Made by a program: the position numbers and the translations under genes. Below, piece by piece: positions 22,716 to 45,875 of a stretch of DNA of 64,000 bases; position 1 is the stretch's first letter, and each line of letters begins with the position of its first letter. Origin of the DNA: Eutreptiella sp. 'Long Island Sound 2002' (lineage: Eukaryota > Euglenozoa > Euglenophyceae > Eutreptiales > Eutreptiaceae); assembly GCA_964036045.1 (NCBI GenBank), contig OZ038381.1, positions 147,011,596 to 147,075,595 of the forward strand, given 5' to 3'. Under the pieces are notes generated by a model. The model saw nothing but the letters and a program-made list of their open reading frames with translations. It was not told the origin of the DNA and did not search any database.

Positions 22716-22759
22716 GGCAAGCATTTTCAATAAAATTGGTAATTCTTCCTTTGTGGTAA

Positions 22760-23095: not shown

Positions 23096-23339
23096 CAGCA
23101 TACACTTCTCGGTGAGGCCCGCGGGTGGCACTGCTAAACCCTGCGGCAGGAGGGTGCTGGCGGCTGAGCCCAAAAATTGTTCCGGCGGCGGCCGGTAGGT
23201 TGTTCCGATGACGTTCTGGCGGCATTCCATTGGCCTCTAAAACGTTGCTAGCACGTTGCCGGAACAACACAATTGAATAGCACGTTTTGCGCGCACAATG
23301 TGCACGGCACGCACATGGCATGACAATTGGCAACTTAGG

Positions 23340-23530
23340 GGCTTGCATATCCCCTTAGGGTATAAAAATGGCGACGTGGGGCCAATGTTGGGGACTTGGC
23401 TATCTCCTCAAGGCACAAAAATAGCGGGGTCAGGGCCAACCATGGGGGCTTGGCTCTCCTATCCCCTCAAGGCACAAAAATAGCGAAATAGGGCTAACGT
23501 TGCGCGCCTGGCTATCCCCCCAAGGCATAA
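23340..23530. repeat. ~65-bp tandem repeat, three to four copies
   Basis: Units with GGCTATCTCCTCAAGGCACA and AAAATAGCG alternate. Fewer copies exist at the mirrored position in the left arm (10905-11040). Confidence 0.65.
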
Positions 23531-24268
23531 ACGACCCCCCGCCGCTGTGCGCAACCGCCTGGCCCTTTTATGCGCTTGGGGCAAACGACAAGTGTCTGCA
23601 ATAAGAAGAACGCCCACTGGGTACGATCGGGTAGTCCGGACTACATGTTTCCCTCGTAAAATGCGGCCATCGGCGTCCCAAAAGGCCACATTGTATAGTG
23701 ACCCAAGTTGTGAGGCGGGTGAAATCCCAATGATGCGACAACCATGGCGAGTTGCCACCTAGCCAAACATCAAGCGGGTGCTCAGGGGGGGTGTAGGCTA
23801 GGTGTTTGGTGCCCACAACGAGCTTGATTTCCTGAAAAAACAAAGGCAAATCGTTGGAAGCAAATTGTTATAATGGGCGTCCAAAAACAGATGGGTTGAA
23901 CACGACTAGAACACCGCAAGAAGAATTATGTTGACTACCACTAGAAAGATGGTGGCTGCAACGAAACGCACCTTGATTCTGGCTTCCCAAAGGGTTGCCA
24001 AGGTGGCAATTTGTTTGTGCCCGGAGATGGCAAGGTTGATGACCTACACGCAAGCAGGGATGCATCCCAAGAGGCCCATGTTGACGATGCACACGCTGGG
24101 TTGGGAGCACTCCTCCGTAGCGCATGGATAGCCAACCCCCCTGACAATGAATGTCAAGGGGAAGGACTGATCAATCACATGGCACGATGTAGGTTGGCTC
24201 GCAACGTAGCAAAGCCACGATACCCACGGCCAGATGATGCCTTTGGCCCTCGGGTCGGATGTGCTCAC
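23459..24268 (-). pseudogene. Transposase-like relic, right-arm mirror of copy 1
   Basis: Minus-strand frames include IDQSFPLTFIVRGVGYPC and IIGISPASQLGSLYNVAFWD, then ADGRILRGKHVVRTTRSYPV and GVLLIADT. The last stretch is intact here, whereas the left arm has a stop after ANGRV. The two arms therefore decayed separately after duplication. Confidence 0.4.
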
Positions 24269-24762
24269 CGGGGGCTGAGACTGACTGGGGCTAATAGGTC
24301 TTGGAACCGCTGCAGCAAAGCCCTCTCTTGGCGAGTAATTGGGTCAGCCAACAACAACCCAATGAGCACCGTGTACTTCAACCCCTGAAGGGTGTACACC
24401 TCGGAAAACATACGCAATGCTGGTTTGGGTGCAAGTAGATTTGGGATCAATACATAACACTCATCTAGGGGGAGGACGGCAAAGGCCTACTAAGTGATTA
24501 GCTCCTGGTGCACCTCTCAAACACAAGAAAGTTGGGCCAAAATGGGTGCCGAGCGTGTGGGGAGGCAACTGCCCATTCGAACAAGAGCCCCCAAATGAGG
24601 ACCCCATTATGAAGGCTTAGAGCACCCTCCCAATGGACAAGGTGGGTAATCAGTTGCCCGACCAAGTCGATTTAGCACACATGGTGATCTAAGAAAAATG
24701 AACACGAATGACCACATTTCAAAATGCATAACCCTAGTGGAAGGTATCTTTGGACGTACGCT

Positions 24763-24937
24763 CAGTGTACGCATTCCAATTTTTAGTCACCCATCTTCAG
24801 CAGTGCTGTTATTTCTTGTTCGGAGCAATGATTCTATGTCTTTTGAAGGGTGACACTCGACATTTCCCGTTACATTAGTATTTTCTTCTTGTGCGAAGTG
24901 CTTCATTTTACTGTTATTCCTTTACTACACCAATGAT
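24763..24937. repeat. Partner of the flipped segment at 8372-8546
   Basis: CTCAGTGTACGCATTCC to ACACCAATGATG, same orientation as in the left arm. The left flank (TTTGGACGTACG) and right flank (GCTGTAATGCCACACAAC) are both in the inverted orientation expected of the arm. Confidence 0.75.
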
Positions 24938-25191
24938 GGCTGTAATGCCACACAACATGCTGCGAAGGCCCAAATGACAACCACAAGCCTTTGACACATC
25001 CGCACACCGACAAAGGGACGAACACGAAAAACAATGCAACGTATGCATCAGTCACAAACGGACGATATACAAATGCTGCAATTACCCCCTACCCCCACAG
25101 AAAATAGAGGTTGGATGGTTGTCTAATCTTGGACCACATGCTATGGGCAAAGTGCAATGGACAAAATGCAACGAATTGAATAGTACAACAC

Positions 25192-25653
25192 ATGCAAACA
25201 CTCATAAAATGTAGTTGTGCGGGTGGTTGGGCACAGAAGCAATCTTCGGCGCTAGGGCATTGTGCCGCAAAGGTCCGGATGCATACAACAAGTCCACGGT
25301 GCAAAAATAGCACACGGAAATCCCCCGGGGAGCAGATAGAGAGTGGCGGGTGCGGCAAATGCTGGATTACGGTACACAAGGTGCGCCTTGGGGTGGACTA
25401 CTTCCTCCACAAATGAACGGCACCAGTTGAGATTGAAGAAATGATGCTTTTAGGTTGTGACGAACCAATGTGGGCACGCATGTATTCTTTGGGTGACAAG
25501 AAGCGCCGCAAAAGAACTCTTCCAGCTTCCCACATTGGTCACATGGTTTCTGATGGCGACACGATTGTTGTTTGTGATACATGGAAACCTTTTGGTGTCG
25601 TGGGACAACCCCCCCATCCGGCAGCACACATTGACGAGAGGGTTTGGGCATGA
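25192..25653 (+). pseudogene. Decayed unknown protein, right-arm copy
   Basis: Plus-strand mirror of 7640-8190: CGKCWITVHKVRLGVDYFLHK, a stop, then VEIEEMMLLGCDEPMWARMY, SLGDKKRRKRTLPASHIGHM and VSDGDTIVVCDTWKPFG. The shared stop predates the duplication. Other plus-strand pieces follow (25699-25887, 26095-26379), so a longer broken gene may run rightwards. Confidence 0.35.
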
Positions 25654-26094
25654 GAGGCTGTTTTAGCCGAACATACGTGAAAGTACGATTGTGCCCCTGT
25701 GGAGTGCTTGGCGATTGGTGCATTTTTGTCTTCACAAAAATGCATCAAAAATCGCGGTCCAAAACAGGCCGAACAATGGCTTTCCAGGCACCAGTCGCAA
25801 GAAAACAGAGGACCCGAGGGGAGTTTGAAAAGGGGGACTCCTTCGGCCTGCCCTAAGCCTTCATGGCATTATGCACCTCTTAGCTAGGAAGCCCTCGAAG
25901 GATCCTAAGCCCCCGCGCCTTTTACCCAGCGTAGGGCTTTGTTTGCCTACACAATGTTGGTGTGGCACAAAGTTGGGTCTCCACTCCCAAGGTGCAAAAA
26001 AAAAAAAGAAAAACCAACCGGGCTTCTGGGATACAAAGCCTGTCGAGGAACTTACCCCTAAGCTGAGTGAAGAAACGCTACAGTCCTGACGTCC

Positions 26095-26379
26095 ATGAAA
26101 GGAGTAAAGCAAAACCGCAAGACTGCATTCCGGCGGTGTCCTGCACTTAGATTCACGTTTTCTGTGTGGTCTCCCATTTCATCTGAAGGTGGAATCGTTG
26201 GCAACAACCCAATCCGGATTCACCTGCAAAGGTTCGCCATCTGCAAAAGCCAATCCAAAATCAACGGTTTGCTCACACGGCTGATTGTAAAAAAGCTAGC
26301 ACAAGTTACAGACAATTGTACAAATCGATTTCAGAATTTTGCCAAATTGCCCAAATGTGTACTTTGCATTCGGCTGTAA
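26095..26379 (+). pseudogene. Conserved ORF remnant in right arm
   Basis: Mirror of 7050-7343: KGVKQNRKTAFRRCPALRF and GGIVGNNPIRIHLQRFA. It ends where the inverted repeat ends. Confidence 0.35.
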
Positions 26380-29039: not shown

Positions 29040-29068
29040 TGCCACTTAGGCTGCTGAGAGCGCCCACC
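29040..29068. repeat. Left end of outer transposon: TSD TGCCA plus TIR
   Basis: TGCCA at 29040-29044 directly precedes CTTAGGCTGCTGAGA. The matching right end is at 45042-45070. Confidence 0.8.
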
Positions 29069-29564
29069 GCCGGATGTTCACGATGGACGCCAGAAGGGCT
29101 GTTGCCCAAACGGGAGAGCTGTGCTGTTGAACGGCAAAAGCTGTACTGTTTTCGGAAGTGCTAAACCCAGAAAAGTAAAACAGTTGCAAACAAGTATCAA
29201 AATTATGGAAAACACAACCACTGTGCAACCCTGGAAGCAGTACAAGTACCAGCGAAATCATGCATCATTTTGGCTATTTCTAATGAGACGCACCAGTTTT
29301 GTTTGTTTTAAACTATAGAAAGCAAATCCACCGGCGAAAAGATTTTGCTTCCAAAAGTGCAATGACACAAGGGAGTGCAGAATGCGAATACAAGGAATGC
29401 GTGGCAGGGACAGGTGTGATACACAGGGCAAAGAGACACAAAGCAACACAGCAGCGGACGATACCGTGAAAGTGTAGCAACCACTACCTTTCGTGGTCTT
29501 GAGTATGGATACTAACCGTCAGACAGCGGTAATATTACATGGTTAAATCAGCAGAATGGCAAAT

Positions 29565-29659
29565 CCCAGCGCATTTGCGCTGAAAAAATCTGAAACGGCT
29601 AATATGATACCCGAAAACTGCTATTTGGTAAAATCTCAGCGCAAATGCGCTGAGTTTTT
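29565..29659. repeat. Two CTCAGCGC-type palindromes, left side of outer element
   Basis: CCCAGCGCATTTGCGCTGA at 29565-29583 and CTCAGCGCAAATGCGCTGAG at about 29635-29654. Both lie between the left end of the outer element and the 3' end of gene G1. Confidence 0.8.
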
Positions 29660-30014
29660 TGGAATCAGCAAAACGCGGTCTGAGAACCTGTCTCTAGACG
29701 CCCGGTACATGGCGTGCAAAAGTATCCCACGAGGGACATGCACCAGTAAAAGTACTGTGGCTGGTCCGACAAACACGGACGACATAAAATGCAACCCAAC
29801 TCTTGGCAGCCTCTGGTCTGCTCCACCATGTGTCACACGTTGGCATGCATGCACCATGCTTGCATGGAAAAGAACTCTAACACGAAGTGTCGGACATTAG
29901 AAGGGATGTACAAAGAGCGTGGTTACTGTGTACAGCAACTCACGCAACATCGATGATGCACAACCGCGACAGCGGTAAAAAATATACAGCAGAAAACATT
30001 TTGAGTACCCGTGC

Positions 30015-30880
30015 CTACTTCTTCTTGCCTTTCTTCAACGCGCTGCCTCTGAAGGCGGCCGCACTGAAGGCCTCCATGGGCGACCGCTTCTTTGCGTTGG
30101 TCCCGGCTTCCAGCGCAGCAACGTCTGTCTTTGCCTTCGCTTCTTTTTCTGCTTCCGCCTTCTCCTTGTTTTTCGCTTCCCTCTCCTCCTTGTCCTGCTT
30201 CTTCTTCGCCTCTGTCTCGGCCTTTTCCGTCTCCTTCTTCTTGCGCTCCTTCTCTTTCTCCTCCGCCTTCTTCTTTTTCATCTCCTCTTTTTCCTCCTTC
30301 TTCGACATCTCGCGTCGTTGCTTGGGTGGCTCCGCACTGGTAGCCGTGGGGCCTTGGGGCCTTCACCTTCAGGGGCCTCATCGTCCGTGTCGTCGTTCAG
30401 TTCGGCTTCCTCTGCGGCATCAACATCTACAACGTAGTCGGTGGGGAATGCATCGTTGATGTTAATCAAGATGTTGCGCCACATCATCGGAGGCCTCGTG
30501 TCTTCCGTTCGCAATTGCGCCTGCAGATTTGAGCAGCTCTCGGACAGGTCGACCTTGGTGCGCGCATCGCCGATCACACCCCAGCACCAACTCAATCCAA
30601 CCGGCATCTGGCAAAAGATGGCGGCCAGGCTTCGGCAGTCCTCCGACACCCAGTTAACCCAGCGCATCGCCTTCTCCTGCGGCTCATCGTCCCCGGGGTT
30701 GCTCATGAGCGTAAACACGTAACCCGCAGCCTCCAGCGGCAGCCCGTCGTTACCAGCGCCTGGGTGGCAGATGAATCTCGGTACGTACGCATGAGTGGTG
30801 AAGTGTACTCTTCTACTTGGCACGCGCTTCTTTACAAACACACAGTATTGCAGGGGGTTGCGATGGTACAGGGATTCGCA
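30015..30880 (-). CDS. Gene G1 of outer transposon, 3' part
   Basis: Continuation of 41141-39061 after the nested element. Removing the nested element and one 5-bp duplicate joins the two sides in the same frame (NGC-NT before, CESLYHRNP after), and the frame stays open for a further ~180 codons: VPRFICHPGAGNDGLPLEAA, MRWVNWVSEDC, then an acidic stretch. One extra base near 30350 (in GGCCCCAAGGCCCC) moves the frame into a Lys/Glu/Ala-rich C-terminus (SKKEEKEEMKKKKAEEKEKE) that ends KKRSPMEAFSAAAFRGSALK plus a basic tail. The C-terminus aligns with that of G2 (KKTGVGLAAFSMNLSAA). In G2 an intron lies where the frame change occurs here, but no splice restores the frame in this copy. Interrupted and probably inactive. 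Confidence 0.65.
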
Positions 30881-30904
30881 CGTATCTTAGACGGCCTAAA
30901 ACGT
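30881..30904. repeat. Left end of nested transposon: TSD CGTAT plus TIR
   Basis: CGTAT at 30881-30885 followed by CTTAGACGGCCTAAAACG. The opposite end is at 39042-39065. Confidence 0.8.
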
Positions 30905-32035
30905 ATTTGACCCCGAAAACCACAACCCCACTTCTTCTGAAAAAGGGTGTCCGAAAAAACGTTCAAATAACATGTATTTTTTCCCTCAAAAATATCAACC
31001 AAAAATGGAGAAACAAAACATGCTTTCACAGGCAACTAAGTCATATTTGCAGGCGCGATAAATTGAAACCCTGTACACAAAAAATCGTTGAAAAGGGGTG
31101 TTTTGTTGCAAAAACAGGAAACACCGCACATATACATGGTTTTCAAGACCAAACGCCATCAGTCCGAGATGCAGGTAAGAAATTTCGTCTTCATTCACCG
31201 TGATTCATCGTGACGAGAGGATACAGAAAAGGATATGCAGGTGGGTACATCCACTAATAGTAAATTTATAAAACAATTATTTCCAAGCGAAATTTCGAAT
31301 GGAAATTTGAAACCAGGACTATATTGGTGGATGATGGATAACAGAGCAGGGAATTACCTATTTCAAACGTGTAACGATTCAGACAGCCAATTGAACGTCG
31401 CAGGTCGATGGTGTGTATAGATACCTTAAGTGATAGTGAGAAATAAAAAACACTTTTATCGTGAGACTGAAAGGCACGCGTTATTCTAATTGAAGGGAAT
31501 GTTTCACAATCTCATTCGCATACAGACATCATAAATTCCATTCGAAATTTCGCTTGGAAATTGCATATGACGATTTCTTCCCGAGTTTATTAGCTACTGT
31601 GACTGTACTTCACTAACGACCGATACAGAAATCAATTTGTGAATTAGGTACCATGTCTGTTCACCTGTGCAAGATAATATGCAATAGATGGGAGCAAATC
31701 AGTGAACACAGGAAAACGCAAAGAGCAGCAATTACTGTATGACATCTGCACGTTCAATTTGTGTGCGACACCAGAGCGCGTACGTGGGTAGGACATCGTA
31801 CGCACGCAAATGAATGTGAGGACATCATGAATTGTAATTGATAATATCAAAGGTGATACGTTAAGAAATGGAGAATTGAAGAATGCATTATACACAAGGA
31901 AAGCAAAAACACGACCAGACTCGGCAAATGTGAGTTACAATGCTGCTATGCTACACTGAGAGTTGTCGGTGCTTTCCAGTATCCTCGAAGGAAACGGAGC
32001 ATAAATTGAAAGTCCGTTAAACAGAGAATACAGAT

Positions 32036-35000
32036 TTACTCCTTCGCGCGGCTGCGCTGTGCGGCCGACAAATTCATTGAGAAGGCCGCCAACCCGACAC
32101 CAGTCTTCTTTGCCTATAAACATACAAACAAAAAGCAGTGAATGTATAATGTTGGTGTGCAATGTAAGATTCCAAGCGAAATTTCGAATGGAATCGTCTG
32201 AAAAAACCAAAATGTTATGTAGCCAAACGAAATTTCGAATGCATACGATATAATGTCGGATACAATAGCAATAGACCGATATACCTTCTTAGCCTTCTCC
32301 TTCTCTTTCCGTTGTTCCTCAGCAGCACGCTTCTTTGTTTCGGCTTCCTCTTTTTTCTTCCGTGCGGCCTCCTGCTTCGCCAGCTTTGCATCTTCTTTCT
32401 CCTTCCTCTCGCGTTCCTTTTTGGCTTTCTCCTCATCCTTAGATTTCTTTGCTGCTTCTGCGACTTCCTTTTGTTTCTTTGAAATGTTCGGATCGTGTGA
32501 CGCCTTGGGCTTTGCTGCTGGCTTCTTTGGCGAAGTGTCTTCCTCTTCCTCCTTGTCCTCTGCAACATGCAAATGAAGATAGTACAATAGACGCAAACGA
32601 CTATGCAGAAGCCACTGGGAAGGGGAATACCTTCGGACTCCTCTTCTTCGTCACTTTCCTCGGATGGATGTCCTGTCATCGGGCGTTGTGCAATGACGGC
32701 CCAAGGAATGTTCTCCATACTGTCCTCCTCTGGTACTGTAACGGCCAATTCATCTGTCAGTTGCTTCACCGAAGTTGCAAGCGAAAGCAACGCCACGCTA
32801 ACAGGATGGTGTAGTCAAACGAACATCTGGGCAGCAAGCAGTGAACTCGACGAGCTCAGCAGTATCCAAAGAGGCCCGGATGACGCGGAATCCCTCGGAA
32901 CATTCCCAGTGCAGAACAGGTTCATCAACAATCCAAACACGTAGATTGAAAGCCCAACAGCGGCTGGATCCCGGACGGTGAAATACTTGGGTAATGATGT
33001 CTGTACAATATAAGGAACATGAAGGACAATGCACTTATTGTGCAGTTGCAACAGGGGAAAGAGACATACCTCTAAATGTTTGTGTCCTAGAATCGCCACC
33101 ACAGACTCCGTCATCTTATATTTCTTTGTGATCATGCCGGTGTTGTACACCGTGATGTTGTATACATGCGGGTCGACAAATTCCTCATCTGACTTGATGA
33201 AGCCAAGTACATTGTAAACGTCCTTCCTGGCACCGTGTACTACAAGAGGAGTCTCGTTCGACAGCGTAGTGTAAATCAAGGAATTCAAACCTCCGGTCCA
33301 ATTCTTAGGTACATCACACACCGCAATCCGGAACTCCAACGTCGAAACATCAGCATGAATGACAGCTCCTGGAGCGCCGTCGAGGACAAAGATGATGTCA
33401 TCGGACTGCGATTCCGTCGCGCCGGGCAGGACAATCCGACTGGGTCGGGACCCTTCAACGGTTGTGATCTACAAAGAAGGCAAGTAATAATATTACGATG
33501 TAAGATACACGATGTACGATAGTGCGCTCTAACCTATTCGAAATTTCGAATGGAAAAAGTATATTTCCATTCGAAATTTCAAATGGAAAAAGACGTCCAT
33601 TCGAAATTTCGAATGGAAATATACGACGACACGCAAATTAGGCAAACACCTGAGGCTTCAATGTAGGGCTCTTCAACGTGTGTACCAGCGCTGCATGGTC
33701 CTCATCGGACCACAGTTTGGACTTCGCAATGACGTGCCACGGGGGCATAGGTTCATTCTCAGTTGGTTGCCATGTGGACTTCGGTCGAACCGCCAAGTCC
33801 CCGATACTCTTCGATGTCCGTAATGTTCTAAGAACACGCTCCCACTGCACACGCGTCCGACAACCGCGTGTACAGCCGTGCCCGGGTGCTGAAAATGCCA
33901 CAAATACAGCCTCTCTTGTTTCAGATCCTTGCATTTCTTCTGCATCAGGGTCGGCGACTTGCCGTACGGCAAGGACTGTACAAAGGGTATGGCGTTTCGG
34001 GATTAGTCACACTTCAAAACGCTACACAAAGAAATAAAACAAACCTGCATATATTTCAGCAATTCATCGAGTTCATCATTGTACAGGCCTTCGTTTGCCT
34101 TGAAGTGGAAGAACACCGGGGCCGTTGCCTCTGACGCGCACAACGAGGCGATGAAATTCACAACCGGTTGTCCACCGCGACGGACTACTTTTGCAATTGG
34201 TCCCCAAGCTTTTACGGCAGTTGCCTGCGGGGTAAAGTAAATGTAATGTAACGGTTCCAGGCGAAATTTTGAATGGAAATTATGAATACGATACATGCAC
34301 ACAGATACATATCCCCGAACTGGTGTCACATGTGTAACCGGACTTCGACGGCATCATGGCAACCATGTGAGAGTGATCAATGTCAGGGAAACATTTTTGA
34401 TCTCGAAGGATAAGTTCCATCCTTTGACGCAGTGTATGCGGAGCTGTGCCTCCTTGCCTTGTATTGTGTTTCCCTGCCAGTATTTCACGTACATTGAGCG
34501 GAGTACCAGCCTTCAATCTTGATTCTCGGAATATGTTGCACCATGATGGGATTGGCACGCCTGAGTGCTCGTGCTCCAGTGCAATCTCCCCGGTGACCTC
34601 GTAGGCGTGTTGGCCGCCCAAAAAAATGACCTTTCCAGCTTCCGGATATGTCAGAATGTCAATCCTCTCCTTCTCGGAAGGCGGTGCCCCGTCGAAGCTC
34701 CTGCGGACATGCTCTTTCTGGTCCATCGTGATGGTCCACGTTTGCCCACATGCTGCAAATCCGCCAACATTGTCGACAATCAGCTGCTTGCGATGAATTT
34801 CACCAACGTATTCAATGTAGTCGTCGGAGTTCACAGTATCCGGGTCAACGTACTGGTGCTTCTCAACTGAAAGTAAAACATACAGCAGTAGTCGCAGAAC
34901 AGATGCATACATCACAGTATTGGCGAAAGGTGCACACCTTTTTTCTTTGCTTTTGAAGGTGCTGACTGTGTGGCCGAGGTTGGTGCACGTTCTGCAGGTG

Positions 35001-35139
35001 GATCAGGGCTCTTTTCCTTCGTTGGACTTGTCTCCGTCACTTCGAGAATCTCGTCATCGCTGGATTCTTTTCCTTCCGTTTTGGGCACTGCCTGAGAGGC
35101 CCTTACCGCTTTGCCCTCGTGCGTGTCCGAGTCGCTCAT
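32036..35139 (-). CDS. Gene G2 of nested transposon (nine exons; ParB/DGQHR-like motif)
   Basis: Best exon model (minus): 35139-34938, 34866-34295, 34224-34045, 33977-33650, 33468-33066, 33000-32821, 32753-32631, 32559-32285, 32113-32036. All junctions are GT-AG and the phases agree, except for one unresolved frame change inside 33977-33650. Introns are 65-180 bp. Order of parts: acidic Ser/Lys-rich N-terminus from ATG 35139; VIFLGGQHAYEVTGEIA followed by GTPLNVREILAGKHN; a middle domain with LYLWHFQHP; DVSTLEFRIAVCDVPKNW; VWIVDEPVLHWECSEGFRV; and a Lys/Glu coiled coil ending LAAFSMNLSAAQRSRAKE. GGQHA resembles the GQHR motif of ParB/DGQHR proteins, so DNA binding or nucleotide use is possible; this is inference from a short motif. 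Paralogue of G1. Confidence 0.65.
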
Positions 35140-35910
35140 CAGACAATGAAACACTGTCCCGCAGATACAAAAAACAAGAAAAACCGAAAATATTGAGACC
35201 GGAAACAAAACGGTACTTCTTTTGTATGATCGCAATACGTATGAATGCAACGCAAAGAATTCGAATGCCATGGACCATCAGCAGAATTACCTATTGACAC
35301 GTTAGCTGAAGTTTTGTTGTTTATCGGGTTTTTTCCATTCGAAATTTCAAATGGAACACCTTCCGTTCGGATTGGTGACATCGGATGGCACACACGTTCG
35401 AGTTGACGATTTTATAATGCATGGTGAACGTGTGTATGTAGCGCTTGGGCAATCTGGACATTATTGGAATTTTTCCATTCGAAATTTCGATTGGAATTTC
35501 TGCAACTCAGATTGGAAATAGTCGAAGCAGGGCACTTCGTATACACAAGGGTAGCACGCAGAAGCACAGCAAAGAAACATCAAAGTCCGATTTTAAATTA
35601 TGAAAAGCATTTGTTTTCCGTAGGTAGGAGCCGGAGAATCTATTACACAACAGTGGAATTGTGTTGCCTTCAGTGACACTCACCTTCGTCAGCAATCACC
35701 CTGTGTGCAGATAGCATGCTTGTCCCTGTTGTTTCAGCATATGTCGTACAGCACGTGCGCAAGGCGTACACAGGCAAACATCTCTGTCCATTCGAAATTT
35801 CGTTTGGCCCAGATACAATGCACGAAAAGCCAATCAGAACATGGTACTCTGCGTCCGAGTCAATTTGCAGTCTCCAGGCCATCGTCCATCTCAGGGGGTA
35901 GGGGTTCTGC

Positions 35911-38084
35911 TTATGCCATAATAGGTAGGTCGTCATCTGCGGTCATCTCCTCTTCCTCATCGTCCGAAGGCAGGGGATCGTAAATGGAGGGGTCAGGCCT
36001 GCCTAGTGCATGTGGTTCCCTGTGTTGTGGTCGATCAGGTGGATCAGGTGGAGGAGGAGCTTCCGGTAACTATCTCGTGTGCCGTGCAACGTATGGTGCA
36101 ACCCGCGCTGGAGGTATGACACGCCGAATTGGGCCCACACGTCTTAGTATTTGTCCCAATTGGTAATGATACCTGTCCACTTCTCGTGTTGTCGTGCGGG
36201 GAACACCAGCGTGCGTCAATGTACCGACAGGCAAACGGGAGGTTGTACTGGCAACGATTAGCTTCACTCAGTGTCGTAGACACTGAACATACATCTCTTT
36301 GTTTGCTGTGATGTAGGGAGCTGATCGCCAATCATAGTCCCACTGGGGTTTTGGGGTCACAGTCTTTGCTGAGTGCCACTCAACAAAGAACTGATCCTGG
36401 GAACCAGCAGTTCTGTAGAATCGCTTGACGTTGGTGAGCAGGAAATCTATGAATCGTTGAGGCAGAATCTCACGAGCATGTGGGCTAACCTCTTTAGGTA
36501 AAGGGAGGGCAATGAATAAGGTTGTTCAGACCTGTGAGGTCATTCACTTGTGGATTGTTGTGCATGCTGCGTGTGTATGCACTCAACCTAGCTTCACATG
36601 GCTCCTCGACGTGTAAGACTCCGGGGCACCTCCAGTTCCATTTTGGGGAACAGAGCAGAGCAAGGGAAATGCTTTGCACATATTCGACCTTTGTTGACTC
36701 TGTACCACATAAACTAACGAGTACGGCGAGACTGTACTGCAGGACGGAATGTGCATGGTGACCGGTCTCCAAATCCCTACCCTCCCAATTCGATTTTCTA
36801 AGAGTGTTGCCAATGATGAAGATTGCAGGTGCATACCGACTCAATAGCCTAACCAGACCGCGAATCTTATGGAGTGTCGCGGCATTGCTCACAGACAAAG
36901 GCCTCCGCATCTTTTCCAATGCTTTTAACATTTCGGTGAGAATGTCCTTCACCCTTGGCCACACCAGAACACAACCCCCAATCACTTTTTCCATGTACTG
37001 AACACCACGGTTAGCGGGATCATCTCCTGTCATGTGGGGAATGGAACTGAGCAATTGACTTATTATCGGAAAAAACTTTCTCCAAATTAGTGTCAGAGTG
37101 TACTTGTATGGATGCCCAGCACCATAGAGAAGGGGGACATCCTTCAGCCAAAAGCGAACATTGCATGTATGATAGTCTCGCCCATACAGAAAGCGCATTA
37201 TGCGCCCGTAGATCTTCATGTCTACCAAAAGCGGCATTGTGTGTCCCGTGCGCTGCTGAATCTTCCGCATCTCCGTGAGCAACTGAAAAAGCTCAGCATG
37301 TGTTCCAGACCTGCTTTCCGATACAGCCAGTGGCTTGCACCGTAGAGGTTTAAAAACTGGGCGCACAATGTCTAACGGAATACGCAAAAACTCTCGTTTA
37401 ATGTTGCGCAACGTGAAGCGAATGCCCTGCAACAAATTTGGGACAGATTGCTGCACCAGTGTAGCGGTACTGTTCACCGATAATCGCACAGCCGCAATAT
37501 GCTTATGTCCTACGAACATTGGCAACCGTCTTCTGGTAAGCACAACCATGATTACTGATAGGTCTGCGCTGACATTGCTTCTCATAGGGTTCGTCAGGAA
37601 CTGGCGAGAAAACATATTGTCTGCCCACATCGCATGCTGTGTGTGTCCCAGCTCCTCCCATCTCTGCAGTGTCATGTCCTCAGCCCGTTTTTCCAATGAC
37701 GGCAGATGACTCTGTGCCATTCCAGCAGCTGACAGAACCCTTCTTGCCGCCTTGCTTTTTGACAGTGAAAACTCTGTTGTACGCTTCGCGCACGGCAATG
37801 AGCGAACGTGAAAGCACCTCCAAATCATAAACAGTGTTTTGGAAAAATGTGTTCAGCCATCGTGGACACTCACCCGTCAGTCCTTGCTTTACTTGCACCA
37901 TCGTCTGGGGGTTCCGTGTCCTGTAATCTGCACGCAGCGCAAGGCAGAATTCGACAAAGGGCAGAGTGACACCACCGGCATCTGCGTCTCTGAGAATTTG
38001 CTTCCCGTCACTGAAATGCCTGCACCGAAGCATTTTGCGTACTTCAGAGGCATGCAGAGATGACTCCGGTGTGCCACGGGTCAT
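35911..38084 (-). pseudogene. Gene E2 of nested transposon, candidate transposase, broken
   Basis: Starts at ATG 38084 (MTRGTPESSLHASEV). The frame changes at an A5 run near 37757, then 444 codons run to a stop at 36494. Homology continues in other frames (HAREILPQRFIDFLLTN; a Pro/Arg-rich region) to an acidic tail, DPLPSDDEEEMTADDD, with stop at 35911. The total span (2.17 kb) equals E1 (2.09 kb). Motifs shared with E1 in order: MWADN (E1 MWMDN), GHTMPLLVDMKIY (E1 GHTMHLLIDCAIHY), PLLYGAGHPYKYT (E1 PLNFGVWHAYKS), HVEEPCEARLS (E1 HVEENNEANLS). The conserved Asp, Asp, His and Glu suggest a DDE-type transposase. At least two lesions indicate inactivity, unless the A5 break is a sequencing error. 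Confidence 0.6.
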
Positions 38085-39041
38085 GAAACAAAGAAAAAAC
38101 TGGTACAGAAGACTAATAGGCACAGTATTGAAACAGCAATATCAAGTCTGAATATCCACCTGTAAACGAGAGTACAACAATTCACCCAATATCAACACAA
38201 CATTGTGTACATTTCCAATATTCCATTCAAAATTTCGAATGGAATATTTTCAATTGTTCGAGTTTTGTTGGAGAAATGTAATCCACGTGCTATCCAATTG
38301 AATCCAGATCATAAAATTTCCATTCGAAATTCCGAATGGAATATTCAAATTCCCTATATTTGTCTTTCTTCGACGACCTGTACATCATTTTCTTTTTTCC
38401 ATTCGAAATTTTGAATGGAAATTTCATTTATCATGAAAGTTCTTCTGCACTGTCATATTCCTTCTATGACAATTTCCACTCGAAATTTCGAATGGAAATT
38501 TATCTCCATGGTCTATGTTGCAATCGATTCTGCTAATGCGGATTGTTCATGCGATGTAACAGAAACATATCATTCACATTGACCCATTGTGTGCACGCTT
38601 TCCATTCTAAATTTCGAATGGAAATTCCAATTTTAACATGCAATTGTACTACTTCATTACTATTATGCTGCCTGTACAATTTCCCATGCGACATTTTTCT
38701 TTGGTTCGCCCAAGGGACATTAAAAAGGTCTTTCTACAGATGTGTACTACTGAAAAACATCAGTTATCTTTGTATGTAAGTGTCCTTACTAAAGTGCCGA
38801 CATCCATGTACATCTTTTACACAAGTACACAGGTTCCGAAGCTTTGTTCTACTTCTTTGAAATCATATTGGTTCTTTGGAGTATTACTAGGTCGGAATGT
38901 TTCATATCTGTTACGGATATGTGCGTATATCATGTTTTTTTCGATTCCACTTTTTACGTCCGAAAAAACAGCTGAAAACACCCTGTTTCGTTTCTTTCCG
39001 TTTTCGTCAAGATTTTCTATTTTTTGGCCTGCTTTTAACCA

Positions 39042-39065
39042 TCGATTTGGGCCGTCTAAGTGTAT
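39042..39065. repeat. Right end of nested transposon: TIR plus TSD TGTAT
   Basis: CGATTTGGGCCGTCTAAG (39043-39060) followed by TGTAT (39061-39065); it mirrors 30881-30904. Confidence 0.8.
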
Positions 39066-41141
39066 TGCAGCCATTCCACACCTGCTGAGATATTGAGCCC
39101 GTGTGGATCACGGTCAGGCACATCTCGTCCACGAGGTAGGGGGTCCCCTTCGTTGCCTTGCCGTAGCAGGTGAGATCTAGGCTCATTAGTGGCGCATCCC
39201 CCCCGTGAGTGCTGGTGATGATGTTCTTGAGCGCATACATGTCGCTTCTATGCCCGTACCACACAAGGGGGATGCCCCTCATCAAAGTGCCTGCGAGGAA
39301 CTGCGGGAGGCGATATGACCAGTAGCGCGGCACCTCGAAAATCGAGAGGTTCATAGGCAGAGCGCTGATTTCCGCAGGCACGGCGACGCCCGCTGATCCA
39401 TCGTACAAGAGGAGTTTCCCCTCACAATAGTCTTTTGGGACGTCAACCTGCGCAACCCCGCCTTCAGCCTTCGATACTTGGGGTATCATGACCGGCTTCG
39501 CCAACATCTCGCAGAGGGATACCAGCATCTCCTTGTCGGAGGTCCACAGCTGTGCTGCTTGCACTGCAGCATACTACGGAAACGGCTCCGACGGGGTCCA
39601 TTCCCAGCTCTTGTGCGGTGTGATGGTTGCAGCAGTCACTGGACGGCAATATTGCCGTGCCCCTGTCATCTCCAGGTCCGTCTCTGAGAAGCGAAAGAAG
39701 GAATGCAATGCACACATCGACAGATCGAGTTGAGCACGGCTGTGAATTTGAACTGCGGATGCATGCCGGGGACAGCAGTGGTGTACGCAGTGCGCAAGGG
39801 GCAGACGCATACTTCTGCTTGGATGGATTCGATGCTGTGACGGATGGTAAAAGTGCCAGTACCAGAACTGCTGAATGCGCACCGTCTTGATAAACTTCGT
39901 GATCCCGGCCACCGTACACTTCGGTGTGGCACAATAGGTGGCCACTTTCTGCAGATTCTCCGGTATCAAGATGGCACAGTACTTGAATGTGGACATCGTC
40001 ACCGGGATCTTGCGCTGCAGCAGGCTGTACAGGGATTGCACGAAGCTGGCGCCGCAGACCTGCACCATTGATGCCAGAGGCCTGAGTTGCTTCGCTACTG
40101 CCTCCTGCGAGTAGATGTGCACAATGGAAGGCGAGCCACAATGTCGTAGCAGCAAGGAGCTCGAAGAAGAACAAAAGCGAGGCACAAATAGGGAACAGTC
40201 AAAGGAAGAATGCATACCGTGGGTCCTGACTTGGCAGCAAAACCGCTCTGGACAATGATGTCTTCGAGGATCTCACCGAGGGAACGAGTGAGATCCGGAT
40301 CGTCATCAAACAATGTTTGCATCAGGCGGCGGACCTCATGGAGATTGTTCATGCTGCCACCGTGTTGAGTGCGATTATGGATACCCGCAAACGCCGACGA
40401 ACTTGTACTGTGGTATTGAAACGGACGATGTCCATGTCGTAATGGGTGACGTGGTTCGGGGCCGTTTTCATCTGCTCGGCGTATGACTTGGCAATCTCGT
40501 CGTTAGCCTCCTTTGCATGCTGTCCTCCAATACACCAGGTACTCCCAGCTGCAAGAAACGTGAAGGCACATCTGGACACAGAAAGCGGGCCACAACTGTA
40601 CACAAGTACCACACGAACACAGCGTTCACACACCTTGATCGTCCCAGCAGAGAAGTACGAGGCGCTCCTTTGGAGGAGTAGCCAGCAAATCGGTCTTCAC
40701 CCCCGTGACCCGTTCTGGGTCAATGTGCCTGGTCTGCCCCATTGTGCATGTCCGATCAATCTTCACGGACGCCGACGGCTGGTTCACTCTCCGCTCCACA
40801 ATGAACTCAACCAACGCCAACTTCGCCATTCGTGCGCCACAATCCTTTGGACGAGTCTTCACAGGCGGATTTGGTGCATCCCCATATTTCTTCTTCTTGT
40901 CCTTTACTTTCTTCGGCGAACCCGTGAGCTGCTCCTGCACCGGTCCAGGCTTCCCAGCGGTTGTGGGCTTCTTGTCTCCGGCGGCGGAATCGGATCCATC
41001 GTCAGACTTATCGTCGGCCTCCGAGGGTTTTGGCCCGGCGTCATTGTCTACGTCAGAATTCCCGCTGACATCGGAATCTTCAGTCTTGGAGCCCTTGGCT
41101 GGTTCGTCGTCCGAACTATCATTGCCGTCGTCCTTTGCCAT
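39061..41141 (-). CDS. Gene G1 of outer transposon, 5' part (ParB/DGQHR-like motif)
   Basis: Exons (minus): 41141-40634, 40548-40385, 40334-40218, 40104-39813, 39683-39061, all with GT-AG junctions and agreeing phases. The exon then meets the nested transposon and resumes at 30880. It begins MAKDDGNDSSDDEPAKGSK, an acidic low-complexity region to about residue 95, then IDPERVTGVKTDLLATPPKE, WCIGGQHAKEANDEIAKSYA, FWYWHFYHPSQHR and LPMNLSIFEVPRYWSYRLPQ. Each aligns with the same-position segment of G2 (GGQHAYEVTGEIA; LYLWHFQHP; STLEFRIAVCDVPKNW). The 50-bp intron 40384-40335 is the shortest inferred. One in-frame TAG (39576-39574, between EPFP and YAAVQ) breaks an otherwise open reading, so this copy is probably dead as well as interrupted. 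Confidence 0.65.
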
Positions 41142-41735
41142 AGAGTGCAGGCACTGGTAAACCAAGGCAAAAGAGGGCATAGAATGCAGTACAACAAACG
41201 AGAATGGTTTTGCACAGCACTACACAACCCCGTGACCCAAAACGGTACATCGACAGCTGAAGCTAAGGCTCTTGTGGTTCAACAGGTGCACTAGCAGTAG
41301 GGAACAGCCTTCTATGAAGACAAATGTGTGGCACAAGGTGCACTGCAGATGGTGAAAATCTGCCAAAACAGGCAGAATTATCAGCAGAAGAAAGCATAAA
41401 AAGGATAATGACATGTGCGGACGTGCACGGTTGAAGAAAAGTAGTTAAACACATTGAACTCATGTGCACGGTGCTCAGTGTAACTGGTACGTGGCATCGG
41501 AGTGGCAATTACCAGCAGAGCACGGGGAACGTATCATCCTGTAGGGAACTTAGGTGTGTAGTCCCACACCGGGTGTACGCACGTTCTAACCCACCTTGTA
41601 TGACGTCTCTTTAGTGCTGTGAAGGGCCATGGGAGGGTTCAAACAACAGGCAGAGGACAGCAGCGGCTTTTTGGCAGGTCTGCGAAATACCATCGCTGAA
41701 AGCGAGTTAAAAAACGCGATATTCCACAGAAAGAA

Positions 41736-41760
41736 AAATCTCGGCGCATTTGCGCTGAAA
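41736..41760. repeat. CTCGGCGC-type palindrome between E1 and G1
   Basis: TCGGCGCATTTGCGCTGA inside AAATC...AAA, in the E1-G1 spacer of the outer element. The rest of the spacer (41142-42069) holds nothing else that I recognise. Confidence 0.8.
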
Positions 41761-42069
41761 ATATACATTCTAGCTGTTCTCGTGTGTCAAATCACTGTTT
41801 TGTTTTCTCGGCTGTGACGTGTGCACGCGCTGCACAGCGGAGGTACCCGTAGCCGGTGCCCGCAGGATCGCACGTACTGTGTGCGTCGTATTTCACGTTC
41901 ACCCAACGGAAAAACATGTTCAACCCGACGTGCGGTATTTCTAACGACCCGGACGGTCCAGTCTTTCATTCGAGCGTCATGAGCACACAACCGCGAAGCA
42001 AAACACGCAGGACACCAGGCCGACGGCACGCTGAAGAATCGCACTAAACGTCGCACAGTACTTCGTACT

Positions 42070-44163
42070 TTAATCATCGTCCTCGTTGTCGACATCAATC
42101 GGATCCGGATCCGGATCATGATCTAATGGTTCATTGGGGCGGTGAGCAGCTGGTATGCGCAATGCATCTGGCACAGGGCCGGGTACATCTTCAGGAGCAT
42201 TATGTGCCCGTGCACGTGCAACAGGCTCAAGGCGTATACGCAGTCCAACTAGTGCCGCTCTAGTCTCTCTAAGGTTAGCAGGTCCCTTGTGGGACACGTT
42301 CTGCTGCAAAAATTGGAGAACATCAGCATTCGGGGCCCGTCCAGGGCACAACGTGCGGGTGAACCGTCGCAAGAGAGCACACAGGGCAGGTTGAGTGGGC
42401 ACTTCCGTGAGGAAGCTGGCCGGGTAGACATAACTATGGTCATCCTCTTCGGTGATGGCTGACGTTTTCCCGCCAGACCAGGAAATTTTTTTCCAGGGGC
42501 GTGACCCACATGCATTGAACATTGCAATGAGTCCGTTGTACACTGCAGCAACAAGTGTCCGTGGGACGAAGTGGGTCGTTTTTTCTGCTACATCACTGCG
42601 ACGCGGAAGGGTGCGAAACAGGGTGTTCGCATCCTCCAATGCATACATCGCAGGATGCTTTTTACATCGCTTCACCAAGCGCGACAGGTTAGCCTCGTTG
42701 TTTTCTTCTACATGAGCAGCAGCGGGCAGATCCGTCCGGTGCTGCTGCCAAAGGAGAAGTGCAATGCTGATTGTGCGGACATAGTCTACACCATTTGCAG
42801 CACCACGCGACATGGCGAGCAACATCAGGAGGCAACGGCGGAGAATGGTGTGTGCGAGGTGTCCGCTGCCTGCCTGTCTCCCTGTCCAGGTGCATTCCCT
42901 AACAAGCTGTCCAACAATGAACAAACCATGCACATATTCGTCTAGCAGCAGACGCAGTCCCTCAAGCGTTCGAATACCCGTTTTTGTGACATCGTCATGC
43001 GGTTGGGCCCTACCTCGTAACAACACAAGCTTTCGTGCTATCAGTGGGGACAGAATATGCCGGTTCAACAGAAGTGCCGCAACGGTGGACTCAAGTGTGG
43101 CCAAACGGGGATGATTGCGCATCTGTAGGCCAGCTCCGCCACGCGGATGCAGGATGTATGTCAGTAGAGGAAGGAACTGCCTATACGTGATGTTCATTAC
43201 GCTTTTGTACGCGTGCCACACACCAAAGTTCAAAGGCACAGCCCCAAGCCACTGATGCGGATTGTACGTGACTGTGTGACGCGAATACGGAAGTTTTGCC
43301 ACACTGTAATGGATCGCACAATCTATGAGCAGGTGCATCGTATGCCCTGTGTGCTGTTGTGTGTCCCTCACTAATATGAGCAGCTGCACCAATTCGGCGG
43401 ACGTGCCGCATTTCAGCTCAGAGATAAGCATCGGCTGCCAGTGCAAACGCTTCCGACGGTTCCGTGCAATGTCCAGCGGCACACGTATCCATGTTCGTGC
43501 AACAGCTTGTCCGTTCACCGCTCCAATAGCATCTGAAAAACCGGCACATTGCTGCCGGATCCCCTGCGCGGTCGCATGAATGTTCTGCACCAAGTCGTCC
43601 AACGTGCGGTGACCGGTAAAGGGTCGTATATCGATGATGTGCAGCAGTGCGATGACTGTGACGTTCTTTGACACATCCGGTTCTGTAGGGTGTACCGTAA
43701 ATTGCGCGTGGTACCAATTGTCCATCCACATAACTGTGGCATGGTTCTTGATGCTGTCCCACAGACGTGCAGCGGCTCGGTCTGACTGACTACGCATGGA
43801 CGGCAGGGTGTGGCGCACGAGCCCGGTAGCTGATAGTTGCCGTTTGTCGCGTCTATTGAGGGAGAGAGAGGTCCGCTCGCGTAAGCGCTTTCGAGGCGCA
43901 GCGATATGCCGCAGCTGCACGTAAAGATGCCAAACCTGCTTGCAAAACATTTTGTACCAGCGCGGTCTTGGTCGTGCAGCACGGGCGGCACACAGCTGCG
44001 TCATCTTGCGGCGCGTTTTCCGGTTCAACCGCAAGGCAAGGGCCCACTCGATGAAGAGAAAGGTCGGTCCATTGCTGAGAGCCGATGCAACGATAGCATC
44101 GCCGTTGGGCCACTCATGCTCTGTGACCAGAGCTGAAACGCCGGCGGCATTAAGAGACGGCAT
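42070..44163 (-). CDS. Gene E1 of outer transposon, 697-aa candidate DDE transposase
   Basis: A single uninterrupted frame from ATG 44163 to TAA at 42070, no introns. The basic N-terminal third (KRLRERTSLSLNRRDKRQ) could bind DNA. Candidate catalytic motifs shared with E2: VMWMDNW (Asp148), GHTMHLLIDCAIHY (Asp281), PLNFGVWHAYKS (His317) and HVEENNEANLSRL (Glu486-490). A conserved LLDEYVHGLFIVGQLVRECT helix lies between the last two. It ends in an Asp-rich tail (DHDPDPDPIDVDNEDDD). The spacing (about 130 then 205 residues) is compatible with a DDE fold carrying an insertion before Glu, but this rests on motif conservation between only two copies. It is the only intact large gene of the outer element and lies next to its right end, upstream of G1. 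I recognise no named superfamily. Confidence 0.65.
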   Translation of the reverse strand: MPSLNAAGVSALVTEHEWPNGDAIVASALSNGPTFLFIEWALALRLNRKTRRKMTQLCAARAARPRPRWYKMFCKQVWHLYVQLRHIAAPRKRLRERTSLSLNRRDKRQLSATGLVRHTLPSMRSQSDRAAARLWDSIKNHATVMWMDNWYHAQFTVHPTEPDVSKNVTVIALLHIIDIRPFTGHRTLDDLVQNIHATAQGIRQQCAGFSDAIGAVNGQAVARTWIRVPLDIARNRRKRLHWQPMLISELKCGTSAELVQLLILVRDTQQHTGHTMHLLIDCAIHYSVAKLPYSRHTVTYNPHQWLGAVPLNFGVWHAYKSVMNITYRQFLPLLTYILHPRGGAGLQMRNHPRLATLESTVAALLLNRHILSPLIARKLVLLRGRAQPHDDVTKTGIRTLEGLRLLLDEYVHGLFIVGQLVRECTWTGRQAGSGHLAHTILRRCLLMLLAMSRGAANGVDYVRTISIALLLWQQHRTDLPAAAHVEENNEANLSRLVKRCKKHPAMYALEDANTLFRTLPRRSDVAEKTTHFVPRTLVAAVYNGLIAMFNACGSRPWKKISWSGGKTSAITEEDDHSYVYPASFLTEVPTQPALCALLRRFTRTLCPGRAPNADVLQFLQQNVSHKGPANLRETRAALVGLRIRLEPVARARAHNAPEDVPGPVPDALRIPAAHRPNEPLDHDPDPDPIDVDNEDDD

Positions 44164-44281
44164 AACATTGCCTGTTCATTACAGTAGGAACAACCAAGAA
44201 CAGCGCAGGCATGGGTAACGGCAAAGGCTGTCCTTTGCAGATAAAACGAGGCCCTGAAAACCAGTTTTGACTTCGCCGAAA

Positions 44282-44564
44282 AAATCTCAGCGCATTTGTG
44301 ATGAGATTTCATAAAAGTGCAATTTTACATGATCATATTACCTGTCATCCGCTGCTGATTGTTTCTTATCTGCCCGTAGATTTCCTACAATCAAAATGAC
44401 AACGTTCAGGAAATCTCAGCGCATTTGCGCTGAGATTTCCTGAACGTTCTACTTAGGGTACACATATTGCTGACACAGTGTCTTCCGATTTCACCGCCCA
44501 CATACATGCCTGTGCAACCAGTTTTTGCAATTTAAAAAAATCTCAGCGCATTTGCGCTGAAAAA
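44282..44564. repeat. Three CTCAGCGC-type palindromes, including a 48-bp dyad
   Basis: Copies at 44282-44309 (one arm altered), 44401-44448 and 44536-44564. The middle one is the largest: arms of 23 bp (AACGTTCAGGAAATC then TCAGCGCA) around TT, perfectly matched. All lie upstream of gene E1 between its start and the right end of the outer element. Confidence 0.9.
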
Positions 44565-45041
44565 TCACTGTTTAGCTGTTATCGCCTGTGATATTTCCCT
44601 TTTTGGTTTCTTTACCGCCAGTGCACTGCCTTTTCCGTTCCTTTTGTTCTTTTCCCTTCTTGTGTACGGCAATGGCCTCTATCCTGTCTGTGCATACCTC
44701 CTCACAGATGTTCTCTTCCGGACTTGTTCATGTTTTCTGCATGTTTCCCCTACTGGTATCCCTTCTTTGTAATCACATTGTTCCGCGGCTCTTCATCACA
44801 TCCCTTCTTCCCTTCTCCTCTTGCACGTGCACAAGCATCATAACAGCAATTGGCCTTTTACGTAGTACAATTTGTTCTTCGGGACAGTACTTCGGGTTAC
44901 CCGCAAAATCACCTTGTTTTTTCCCATTCCTCCTTGGCATGCTACAACTCTTTCACTAGTTTGTTCATTTTTGTGCCCATTTTCTCTGACAACCGCCTCC
45001 GTGGTTTTTGTCTCAAAGGTGCTTTACAGAGGGTCCAATTT

Positions 45042-45070
45042 GGTGGGTAGTCTCAGCAGTCTAAGTGCCA
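45042..45070. repeat. Right end of outer transposon: TIR plus TSD TGCCA
   Basis: GGTGGG..TCTCAGCAGTCTAAG ends at 45065 and is followed by TGCCA (45066-45070), identical to 29040-29044. Confidence 0.8.
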
Positions 45071-45204: not shown

Positions 45205-45875
45205 AAAGAACCTGCAAACACTTGTAAATATCACCGCGGGGGGTCTAGTCCCCTGTACAGGTGCTGCAATGATGTGTACAAGGGTGTAGAGCCTTCTATA
45301 TATCACCGCACAGGGTGTACTCCCCTGTACAAGTGCTGCGATGATATGTACAAGGGTATAGCCCCTTGTATACATCACCGCAGGGGGTGTACTCCTGTGT
45401 ACAAATGCTGCGATGATAGATAAAAGGGTGGAGACCCTTCCATGTATCACCGCAGGGGGTGTACTCCCCTGTAGCAGTGCTGCAATGATATGTACAAGGG
45501 TGTAGACCCCTTTGTATATATCACTGCCTGCAGGACGTCGACTCCCCTGTACAAATGCTGCGATGATATGTAGAAGGGTGTAGACCCCTTGTATATATCA
45601 CCGATGGGGGTCTAGTCCCCTGTACAAGTGCGGCGATGACATGTACAAGGGTGTAGACCCCTTTTATATATCAGCATAGGGGGTCTAGTCCCCTGTACAA
45701 GTGGTGCGATGATATATACAGAAGGGTGTAGAGCCTTCTATATATCACCGCACGGGGTCTACTCCCCTGTAAGAGTTCTGGGATGACACATACAAGGGTG
45801 TAGACATCACTGCAAGTGGTGTGCTCCCATGTACAAATGCTGCGATGATAGATAAAAGGGTGTAGACCCTTCTGG
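45205..45875. repeat. ~73-bp minisatellite, about nine copies
   Basis: Units with ATATCACCGCA, GGGTGTACTCCCCTGTACAA, GTGCTGCGATGATATGTACA and AGGGTGTAGACCC. The word GATGAT or GATGTG recurs at about 45270, 45340, 45412, 45485, 45562, 45635, 45709, 45783 and 45845. Confidence 0.9.

What the first reader, a model, noticed from the sequence alone, without database searches (positions are those of the whole stretch)
29040..45070. Two related transposons of an apparently undescribed family, one inside the other
Both have CTTAG...CTAAG inverted ends and 5-bp target duplications (TGCCA/TGCCA outer; CGTAT/TGTAT inner), similar lengths (~7.8 and 8.2 kb) and the same two-gene cassette in the same order. 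Ends, duplications and gene content agree independently. I know no named superfamily with this combination, though I cannot search.
Basis: partly seen in the sequence, partly recalled or inferred. Interest (0 to 1): 0.95.

Follow-up and report, generated by a model that had tools for sequence, protein, structure and literature searches.

The report
New two-gene transposon group in Euglena
Two jumping DNA elements, one inserted inside the other, belong to a multi-family group in an alga that appears to be Euglena gracilis; their ends, target duplications and sister copies are clear, but their proteins match no known transposon family in the libraries that could be searched.

Summary
The outer element is 29045-45065 (7,841 bp without the insert), the inner 30886-39060 (8,175 bp). 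The window's own 2.28-Gb genome holds 28 pairs of outer-type ends. Of 16 fetched copies with both ends, 12 have perfect 5-bp target duplications, 2 have 6-bp ones and 2 have none. Fifteen other copies are empty at the inner's site and carry one TGTAT, proving a 5-bp duplication there; the CGTAT/TGTAT mismatch is a later change. Both elements, and a third family (B), carry the same two genes. Gene 1 is under purifying selection and has invariant D148, D281 and E486/487/490: probably a DDE-type transposase, but no fold was obtained. Gene 2 is probably an accessory DNA-binding protein. No convincing Pfam, NCBIfam, PHROGs or PDB match appeared, and no relative was found in viral or prokaryotic contigs. 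Ends, motifs and duplication length together fit none of the superfamilies tested. Repbase and Dfam were out of reach, so 'new superfamily' is plausible but unproven. The host is Euglena gracilis or close kin.

The parts
29045..45065 (-). Outer transposon (family A), genes on the minus strand; 7,841 bp without the insert
   Evidence: Ends coincide with 16 other genomic copies; paired terminal repeats genome-wide
29040..29044 (.). Left target duplication TGCCA of the outer element
45066..45070 (.). Right target duplication TGCCA of the outer element
30886..39060 (-). Inner transposon (family C), inserted in gene 2 of the outer element
   Evidence: 15 of 16 other outer copies are empty at this exact site
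30881..30885 (.). Left target duplication of the inner element, CGTAT (ancestral TGTAT, later changed)
39061..39065 (.). Right target duplication of the inner element, TGTAT
42070..44163 (-). Outer gene 1, 697 aa, one open frame: probable DDE-type transposase
   Evidence: 65 matches in own genome; dN/dS 0.22-0.28 in the eight most diverged pairs; invariant acidic residues
40626..41180 (-). Outer gene 2, N-terminal segment (acidic start, then GQTRHID)
   Evidence: Same segment of copy L014 matches family B at 50% over 64 aa, E = 2e-16
40388..40552 (-). Outer gene 2, second coding segment (GGQHA motif); the frame of this copy changes just after it
   Evidence: in copy L014 E = 1e-26 to family B
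39574..40215 (-). Outer gene 2, third coding segment (WYWHFYHP motif)
   Evidence: In copy L014 42% over 101 aa to family B, E = 1e-23
39066..39564 (-). Outer gene 2, fourth coding segment, part before the inner insertion
   Evidence: Matches inner element, E = 8e-9
30281..30886 (-). Outer gene 2, fourth coding segment, part beyond the inner insertion
   Evidence: Open across the junction when read without the insert
30015..30308 (-). Outer gene 2, lysine-rich tail
   Evidence: similar tails seen in the inner and family B
36494..37828 (-). Inner gene 1, larger part (444 aa)
   Evidence: 30% identical to outer gene 1, E = 7e-55; other genomic matches at 81-94%
37680..38123 (-). Inner gene 1, N-terminal part in another frame (the copy is broken here)
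   Evidence: E = 8e-5 to outer gene 1 N-terminus
34397..34849 (-). Inner gene 2, GQTW...LGGQHA segment
   Evidence: 27% identical to the family B segment; E = 9e-6
32818..33468 (-). Inner gene 2, later segment (VPKNW ... GARKDVY)
   Evidence: E = 8e-9 to the outer segment
32117..32650 (-). Inner gene 2, lysine-rich tail
44541..44562 (.). Family A palindrome (TCTCAGCGCAAATGCGCTGAGA type), site 1 of 6
44414..44435 (.). Family A palindrome, site 2
44285..44306 (.). Family A palindrome, site 3
41739..41760 (.). Family A palindrome, site 4 (between the genes)
29634..29655 (.). Family A palindrome, site 5
29564..29585 (.). Family A palindrome, site 6, 70 bp from site 5
33596..33617 (.). Perfect copy of the inner element's own palindrome (TCCATTCGAAATTTCGAATGGA), one of 16 sites

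Best explanation
Two cut-and-paste (class II, terminal-inverted-repeat) DNA transposons of one superfamily-level group that none of the searched libraries holds. An older copy of one family (A) sits at 29045-45065 and was later hit by a member of a second family (C). Likely working: the gene 1 protein is a DDE-type transposase that pairs the CTTAG...CTAAG ends and inserts them at staggered cuts 5 bp (sometimes 6 bp) apart in A/T-rich targets; the host fills the gaps. The gene 2 protein is an accessory DNA-binding protein that recognises the family-specific palindromes and helps bring the ends together or controls the element's expression. Shown: element nature, exact ends, 5-bp duplication, empty sites for the inner, multi-copy spread, two-gene order, coding constraint on gene 1, palindromes. 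Inferred: DDE chemistry, cut-and-paste excision, the role of gene 2 and of the palindromes.
For: Ends coincide in 17 aligned elements, window included, L013's first bases apart. Of 16 fetched copies with both ends, 12 perfect 5-bp and 2 6-bp duplications. 15 of 16 paralogous empty sites for the inner. 65 terminal matches against 2 in the control, 28 left/right pairs, including short derivatives of 313 and 2,366 bp, as expected of internally deleted copies. Gene 1: mean dN 0.019 and dS 0.064 over 136 pairs, ratio 0.22-0.28 in the eight most diverged pairs and 0.77-3.3 in the five least diverged, the pattern of a gene kept by selection between jumps. D148, D281, E486, E487, E490 are among nine acidic positions invariant in the four aligned sequences of families A, B and C. 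Duplicated bases are 62 of 82 A/T against 47% expected from the window's composition, p = 2e-7. Palindromes: 6 in A, 16 in C, 23 in the part of B held, mean 0 in 20 shuffles each, none inside gene 1 of A, B or C.
Against: No library match and no reliable fold support a DDE enzyme: AlphaFold with two sequences gave pLDDT 34. L009 has no target duplication and L013 an altered end. Family B's right end was not reached, so its duplication is untested; for family C only the window's insertion was examined. Excision was not observed. Family A2 (L027) keeps only 2 degraded palindromes. Not compared with Repbase or Dfam.
Confidence: 0.8

Rival explanations
1. A highly diverged lineage of a known superfamily (most plausibly the CACTA/Mirage/Chapaev/Transib clade, which includes 5-bp duplications, or a 5-bp hAT), too far for the profile searches used.
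For: CMCT elements make 2-5 bp duplications and hAT5 makes 5-bp ones (passages of PMC12730594). The second-D, long insert, E spacing of gene 1 resembles such enzymes (recalled). RAG-like elements also pair two genes with 5-bp duplications (recalled).
Against: Ends are CTTAG..CTAAG, not CA..TG. The C(2)C motif is absent from all 4 sequences of A1, and H(3-4)H is absent from 3 of 4; in the fourth it is not conserved. No Pfam family up to E = 1 for gene 1 of the outer or of family B; for the inner's part only GXWXG at E = 0.044, under its cut-off.
Confidence: 0.25
2. Gene 2 is the transposase and gene 1 the helper.
For: Gene 2 is also conserved across A, B and C and neither gene is identified.
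Against: Gene 1 is one long open frame, better conserved across families than gene 2, with invariant acidic residues in catalytic-like contexts. Gene 2 ends in a lysine-rich tail, more like a DNA-binding helper (inference).
Confidence: 0.1
3. Remnants of large virus-like elements (Polinton-like or endogenous giant virus) rather than simple transposons.
For: 5-6 bp duplications and more than one gene; giant viral insertions are reported in Euglena gracilis (PMC12455990, passages).
Against: No polymerase, capsid, ATPase or integrase match in the proteins scanned with Pfam or PHROGs; two genes in 7.8 kb; no relative confirmed in viral contigs, by searches limited to short peptide patterns.
Confidence: 0.03

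Closest known systems
CACTA/Mirage/Chapaev/Transib (CMCT) clade, including Plavaka, ESTA and Transib/RAG-like
   Same: Terminal inverted repeats, 2-5 bp duplications, large transposase with a long stretch before the last acidic residue; some encode a second protein; CACTA has repeated subterminal sites (last three points recalled)
   Different: Termini CTTAG..CTAAG rather than CA..TG; no conserved C(2)C or H(3-4)H motif; no profile match
KDZ (Kyakuja, Dileera, Zisupton)
   Same: Large TIR transposons, some with accessory genes
   Different: Zisupton makes 8-bp duplications; no KDZ profile match
hAT, including hAT5
   Same: hAT5 makes 5-bp duplications
   Different: No hAT profile match; second gene and palindromes; termini differ from hAT ends as I recall them
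Sola1-1_Ec32 of Ectocarpus, with a ParB-like/methyltransferase accessory protein (PMC12477816, passages)
   Same: A DNA transposon with an accessory protein of a DNA-binding kind; gene 2 here has a 'GGQH' stretch that recalls ParB
   Different: A ParB relation of gene 2 was tested and not supported; no methyltransferase match; Sola1 makes 4-bp duplications (recalled)

Membership tests
Class II TIR DNA transposon | Inverted terminal repeats at exact ends of many copies | tested here: met
Class II TIR DNA transposon | Fixed-length target duplication and empty site | tested here: met
   12 of 16 perfect 5 bp, 2 of 16 6 bp; 15 empty sites for the inner
Class II TIR DNA transposon | DDE/RNase H transposase | tested here: inconclusive
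   Invariant D148, D281, E486/487/490; fold failed; no profile match
CMCT (CACTA/Transib/Plavaka) | CA..TG termini in most cases | tested here: not met
   CTTAG..CTAAG; definition from passages of PMC12730594
CMCT (CACTA/Transib/Plavaka) | C(2)C and H(3-4)H between second D and E | tested here: not met
   CxxC absent in 4 of 4; Hx3-4H absent in 3 of 4, not conserved in the fourth
CMCT (CACTA/Transib/Plavaka) | 2-5 bp duplications | tested here: met
   (5 bp in 12 of 16, 6 bp in 2)
hAT | hAT profile | tested here: not met
   No hAT family in Pfam scans of gene 1; the duplication length alone would allow hAT5
KDZ | 8-bp duplications (Zisupton) and KDZ profile | tested here: not met
Mutator (MULE) | 8-11 bp duplications (recalled), MULE profile | tested here: not met
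Polinton/Maverick | Protein-primed polymerase B, integrase, capsid genes (recalled) | tested here: not met
   No such match among the proteins scanned
ParB (for gene 2) | ParB N-terminal profile | tested here: not met
   hmmscan none at E <= 10; PDB only unrelated chains at E >= 0.27; hhalign probability 0.1% with shallow profiles
Any Repbase/Dfam family | Consensus or transposase match | not testable with these tools
   Databases not available; large protein search switched off

The most novel reading that the evidence does not exclude
A new superfamily of eukaryotic cut-and-paste transposons, expanded in euglenids into at least five families, in which a second gene encodes a self-recognition protein that binds family-specific 20-22-bp palindromes spread through the element: a self-marking system that evolves with each family (analogous to, not homologous with, ParB-parS), used to gather or mark the element's own DNA.
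Probability: 0.15. Interest if true: 0.82.

Novelty: new variant of a known kind. Interest (0 to 1): 0.6.

Why it matters
Euglenozoa are a deep eukaryotic branch, and the published Euglena gracilis annotation leaves 32.73% of its repeats unclassified (PMC11252322, passages). A multi-family transposon group with an unidentified transposase and an accessory gene may explain part of that, would add to transposase diversity, and might supply a gene-delivery tool for an alga of industrial interest. The family-specific palindromes make a clear test of how an element recognises its own DNA.

Tried and rejected
Gene 2 as a ParB relative: a motif resemblance that I recalled; not claimed, because hmmscan, the PDB profile search and hhalign against three ParB sequences gave nothing. 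The profiles were shallow, so a distant relation is not excluded.

Structure prediction: two jobs, both useless (pLDDT 34.2, 33.8), so no fold search was run.

Relatives elsewhere: viral contigs for gene 1 and gene 2 and genome contigs for both: 26-40 stretches matched a short peptide pattern in each scan and none was confirmed. Only viruses, bacteria and archaea are held there, so relatives in other eukaryotes are untested.

Counts of family B and C ends, and of gene 2, in the genome: the tool stayed busy (last attempts; gene 2), so none were obtained.

The right end of family B was not found in the 10.4 kb held.

Papers: in searches I saw only the rows listed (titles and starts of abstracts), up to 20 each, of up to 520 papers. 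None of those rows described a CTTAG-ended, 5-bp group or one in Euglena. The single listed paper with the letters CTTAG (PMC4522978) has it as the target duplication of a fungal LTR element (passage). The library is open-licence only.

Full report
Setting. The window lies in a 2.28-Gb eukaryotic genome of 2,205 contigs. The host is very probably Euglena gracilis or close kin. The 26-base Euglena spliced leader (sequence recalled) occurs 4,707 times there with at most 1 mismatch, against 0 for the control. Light-harvesting protein matches lie in tandem in open frames of up to 6,122 residues, the polyprotein layout known from euglenids and some dinoflagellates (the last point recalled). The size fits the 2.37-Gb E. 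gracilis assembly of PMC11252322 (abstract and passages), whose largest chromosome is 121.4 Mb; G000 has contigs of up to 201 Mb, so it is another assembly.

Observation. The outer element is 29045-45065 and measures 7,841 bp once the inner element (30886-39060, 8,175 bp) and one duplication are left out. The outer's ends agree at 20 of the first 24 bases, the inner's at 16 of the first 18.

Genome-wide test. Gene 1 of the outer gave 65 matches (64 of 7,898 candidates scored): 33 rows at 85-100% identity (family A; some are pieces of one copy), two at 76% (A2), one fragment at 78%, and 29 at 35-37% (B-like; the 6 that I fetched share 95-96% DNA identity). Of 20 fetched A-type regions 16 show both ends at the window's boundaries, with the first bases altered in L013. 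Duplications: 12 perfect at 5 bp, 2 at 6 bp, none in L009 and L013. The terminal pattern, 1 mismatch allowed, gave 65 places against 2 for the backwards control. Pairing left-type with right-type ends gives 28 pairs and 9 leftovers. After one correction by hand (C14, from L019) 16 pairs are 7,663-7,853 bp. The rest are the window's own 16,021 bp, one of 9,963 bp, eight shorter forms from 6,998 down to 313 bp, and two pairs of 88-111 kb that may not be single elements.

Empty sites. The inner element's target is a place inside gene 2 of the outer. In 15 of 16 other A copies that place is uninterrupted and reads a single TGTAT (L023 is deleted there). The inner therefore duplicated TGTAT, and the CGTAT on its left is a later change. 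For the outer insertion itself no empty site was looked for.

Relation between the elements. Inner and outer share no DNA similarity beyond chance. Their gene 1 proteins match at 30% (E = 7e-55) and gene 2 at 23% over 183 aa (E = 8e-9). A (copy L014) and B (L031) match at 37% (E = 3e-122) in gene 1 and in four colinear gene 2 segments (E from 2e-16 to 1e-26). B and C match in both genes as well (gene 2 E = 9e-6). With the inner's gene 1 as query the genome gave 96 matches (95 of 6,797 candidates scored): the inner's own family at 81-94%, and rows at 30-40% that include places in neither A nor B. So further groups exist, judged by identity level only; their DNA could not be fetched. The inner's gene 1 is broken into two frames. 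Gene 2 of the window's outer copy changes frame at a place where 12 of 16 other copies do not; in the other 4 the short pattern was not found.

Age and constraint. Seventeen A elements (window included) are 0.90-0.99 identical, the nearest pair 0.993. Over all 136 pairs gene 1 has mean dN 0.019 and mean dS 0.064; the eight most diverged pairs have ratios of 0.22-0.28; the five least diverged 0.77-3.3 on very few changes. This is the pattern of a gene selected between transpositions and neutral after insertion. Seven of the 17 gene 1 copies have in-frame stops and an eighth (L024) lacks 170 codons, so many are dead.

Proteins. For gene 1 only chance-level hits appeared in Pfam (GXWXG, E = 0.044, inner), PHROGs (E = 0.26) and NCBIfam (E = 0.95), and no PDB chain matched. 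Gene 2 stretches matched nothing in Pfam or NCBIfam, apart from chance-level hits (BKRF4 and VIR_N in Pfam), and only unrelated PDB chains at E 0.27 and above. Nine acidic positions are invariant in the four aligned gene 1 proteins (two of them family A; the inner's covers only 444 residues): D148, D231, E249, E257, D281, E358, E486, E487, E490. D148 and D281 end hydrophobic stretches (VMWMD, HLLID), as catalytic aspartates of RNase H-like transposases do, and HVEE..EA is the best place for the glutamate; this is inference. CMCT motifs were not met. Both AlphaFold jobs failed.

Palindromes. Each of the three families carries its own near-perfect palindrome in many copies. A: TCTCAGCGCAAATGCGCTGAGA, 6 sites at matching places in 15 of 17 elements (5 in L017 and L024). 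C: TCCATTCGAAATTTCGAATGGA, 16 sites in the one element held. B: CTGGGCTCTGCAGAGCCCAG, 23 sites in the 10.4 kb of L032/L035, and 18-20 in each of the six 10-kb B regions scanned alone. The mean was 0 in 20 shuffles each (up to 4 mismatches, 5 for C). None lies inside gene 1 of A, B or C, nor in gene 2 of A; for gene 2 of B and C this was not tested. In B ten pairs stand 69-70 bp apart, and one pair in A 70 bp apart; B's spacers are partly related to each other, so some pairs are copies of a unit rather than independent. A2, an older broken family, keeps 2 degraded sites, near two of A's positions, which weakens any claim that the palindromes are required. Sites that change between families while repeated layout is kept are what one expects of recognition sequences evolving with their own binding protein; gene 2, with its lysine-rich tail, is the natural candidate. 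That is a hypothesis.

Known families. See the membership table. Passages of PMC12730594 give CMCT termini and duplications, Zisupton at 8 bp and hAT5 at 5 bp. Passages of PMC12477816 describe an algal Sola1 element with a ParB-like/methyltransferase protein. Passages of PMC12455990 say that transposases/recombinases abound in the E. gracilis genome. In the search listings I found no description of this group, but Repbase, Dfam and closed journals were not searched.

Verdict. The finding is right in observation and, as far as could be tested, in interpretation: two nested transposons of a multi-family group with no match to a named superfamily in the libraries searched. I file it as a new variant of a known kind (TIR DNA transposon), with a fair chance that it is a new superfamily.

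Noticed in passing
L032/L035 (family B); window 29564-29655: Family-specific palindromes stand in pairs 69-70 bp apart in family B (ten pairs) and once in family A, with ATATTA-like sequence near the middle of several spacers.
   Followed up: partly
L027 1133 and 9080 (G000:C15): A related family (A2, 76% identical gene 1) is repeated head to tail with a period of 7,947 bp, flank included; its right end was not seen.
   Followed up: partly
window 45221-45873: A 72-bp tandem repeat array (about 8 copies) starts about 150 bp to the right of the outer element.
   Followed up: no
window 6965-15118 and 18479-26378: Several long inverted and direct repeats, the longest at 89-95% identity, probably other mobile elements.
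   Followed up: no
window 50398-52449 (-): A 684-residue open frame with a weak C17orf113-type zinc finger match (PF25431, E = 3.6e-5, below the curated cut-off), possibly another transposon gene.
   Followed up: no
G000:C15:4351095-4351407: A 313-bp pair of family A ends: a probable miniature non-autonomous derivative; its sequence could not be fetched.
   Followed up: partly
window 53007-64000: Large tandem or nested duplications, many at 82-98% identity, fill the right end of the window.
   Followed up: no
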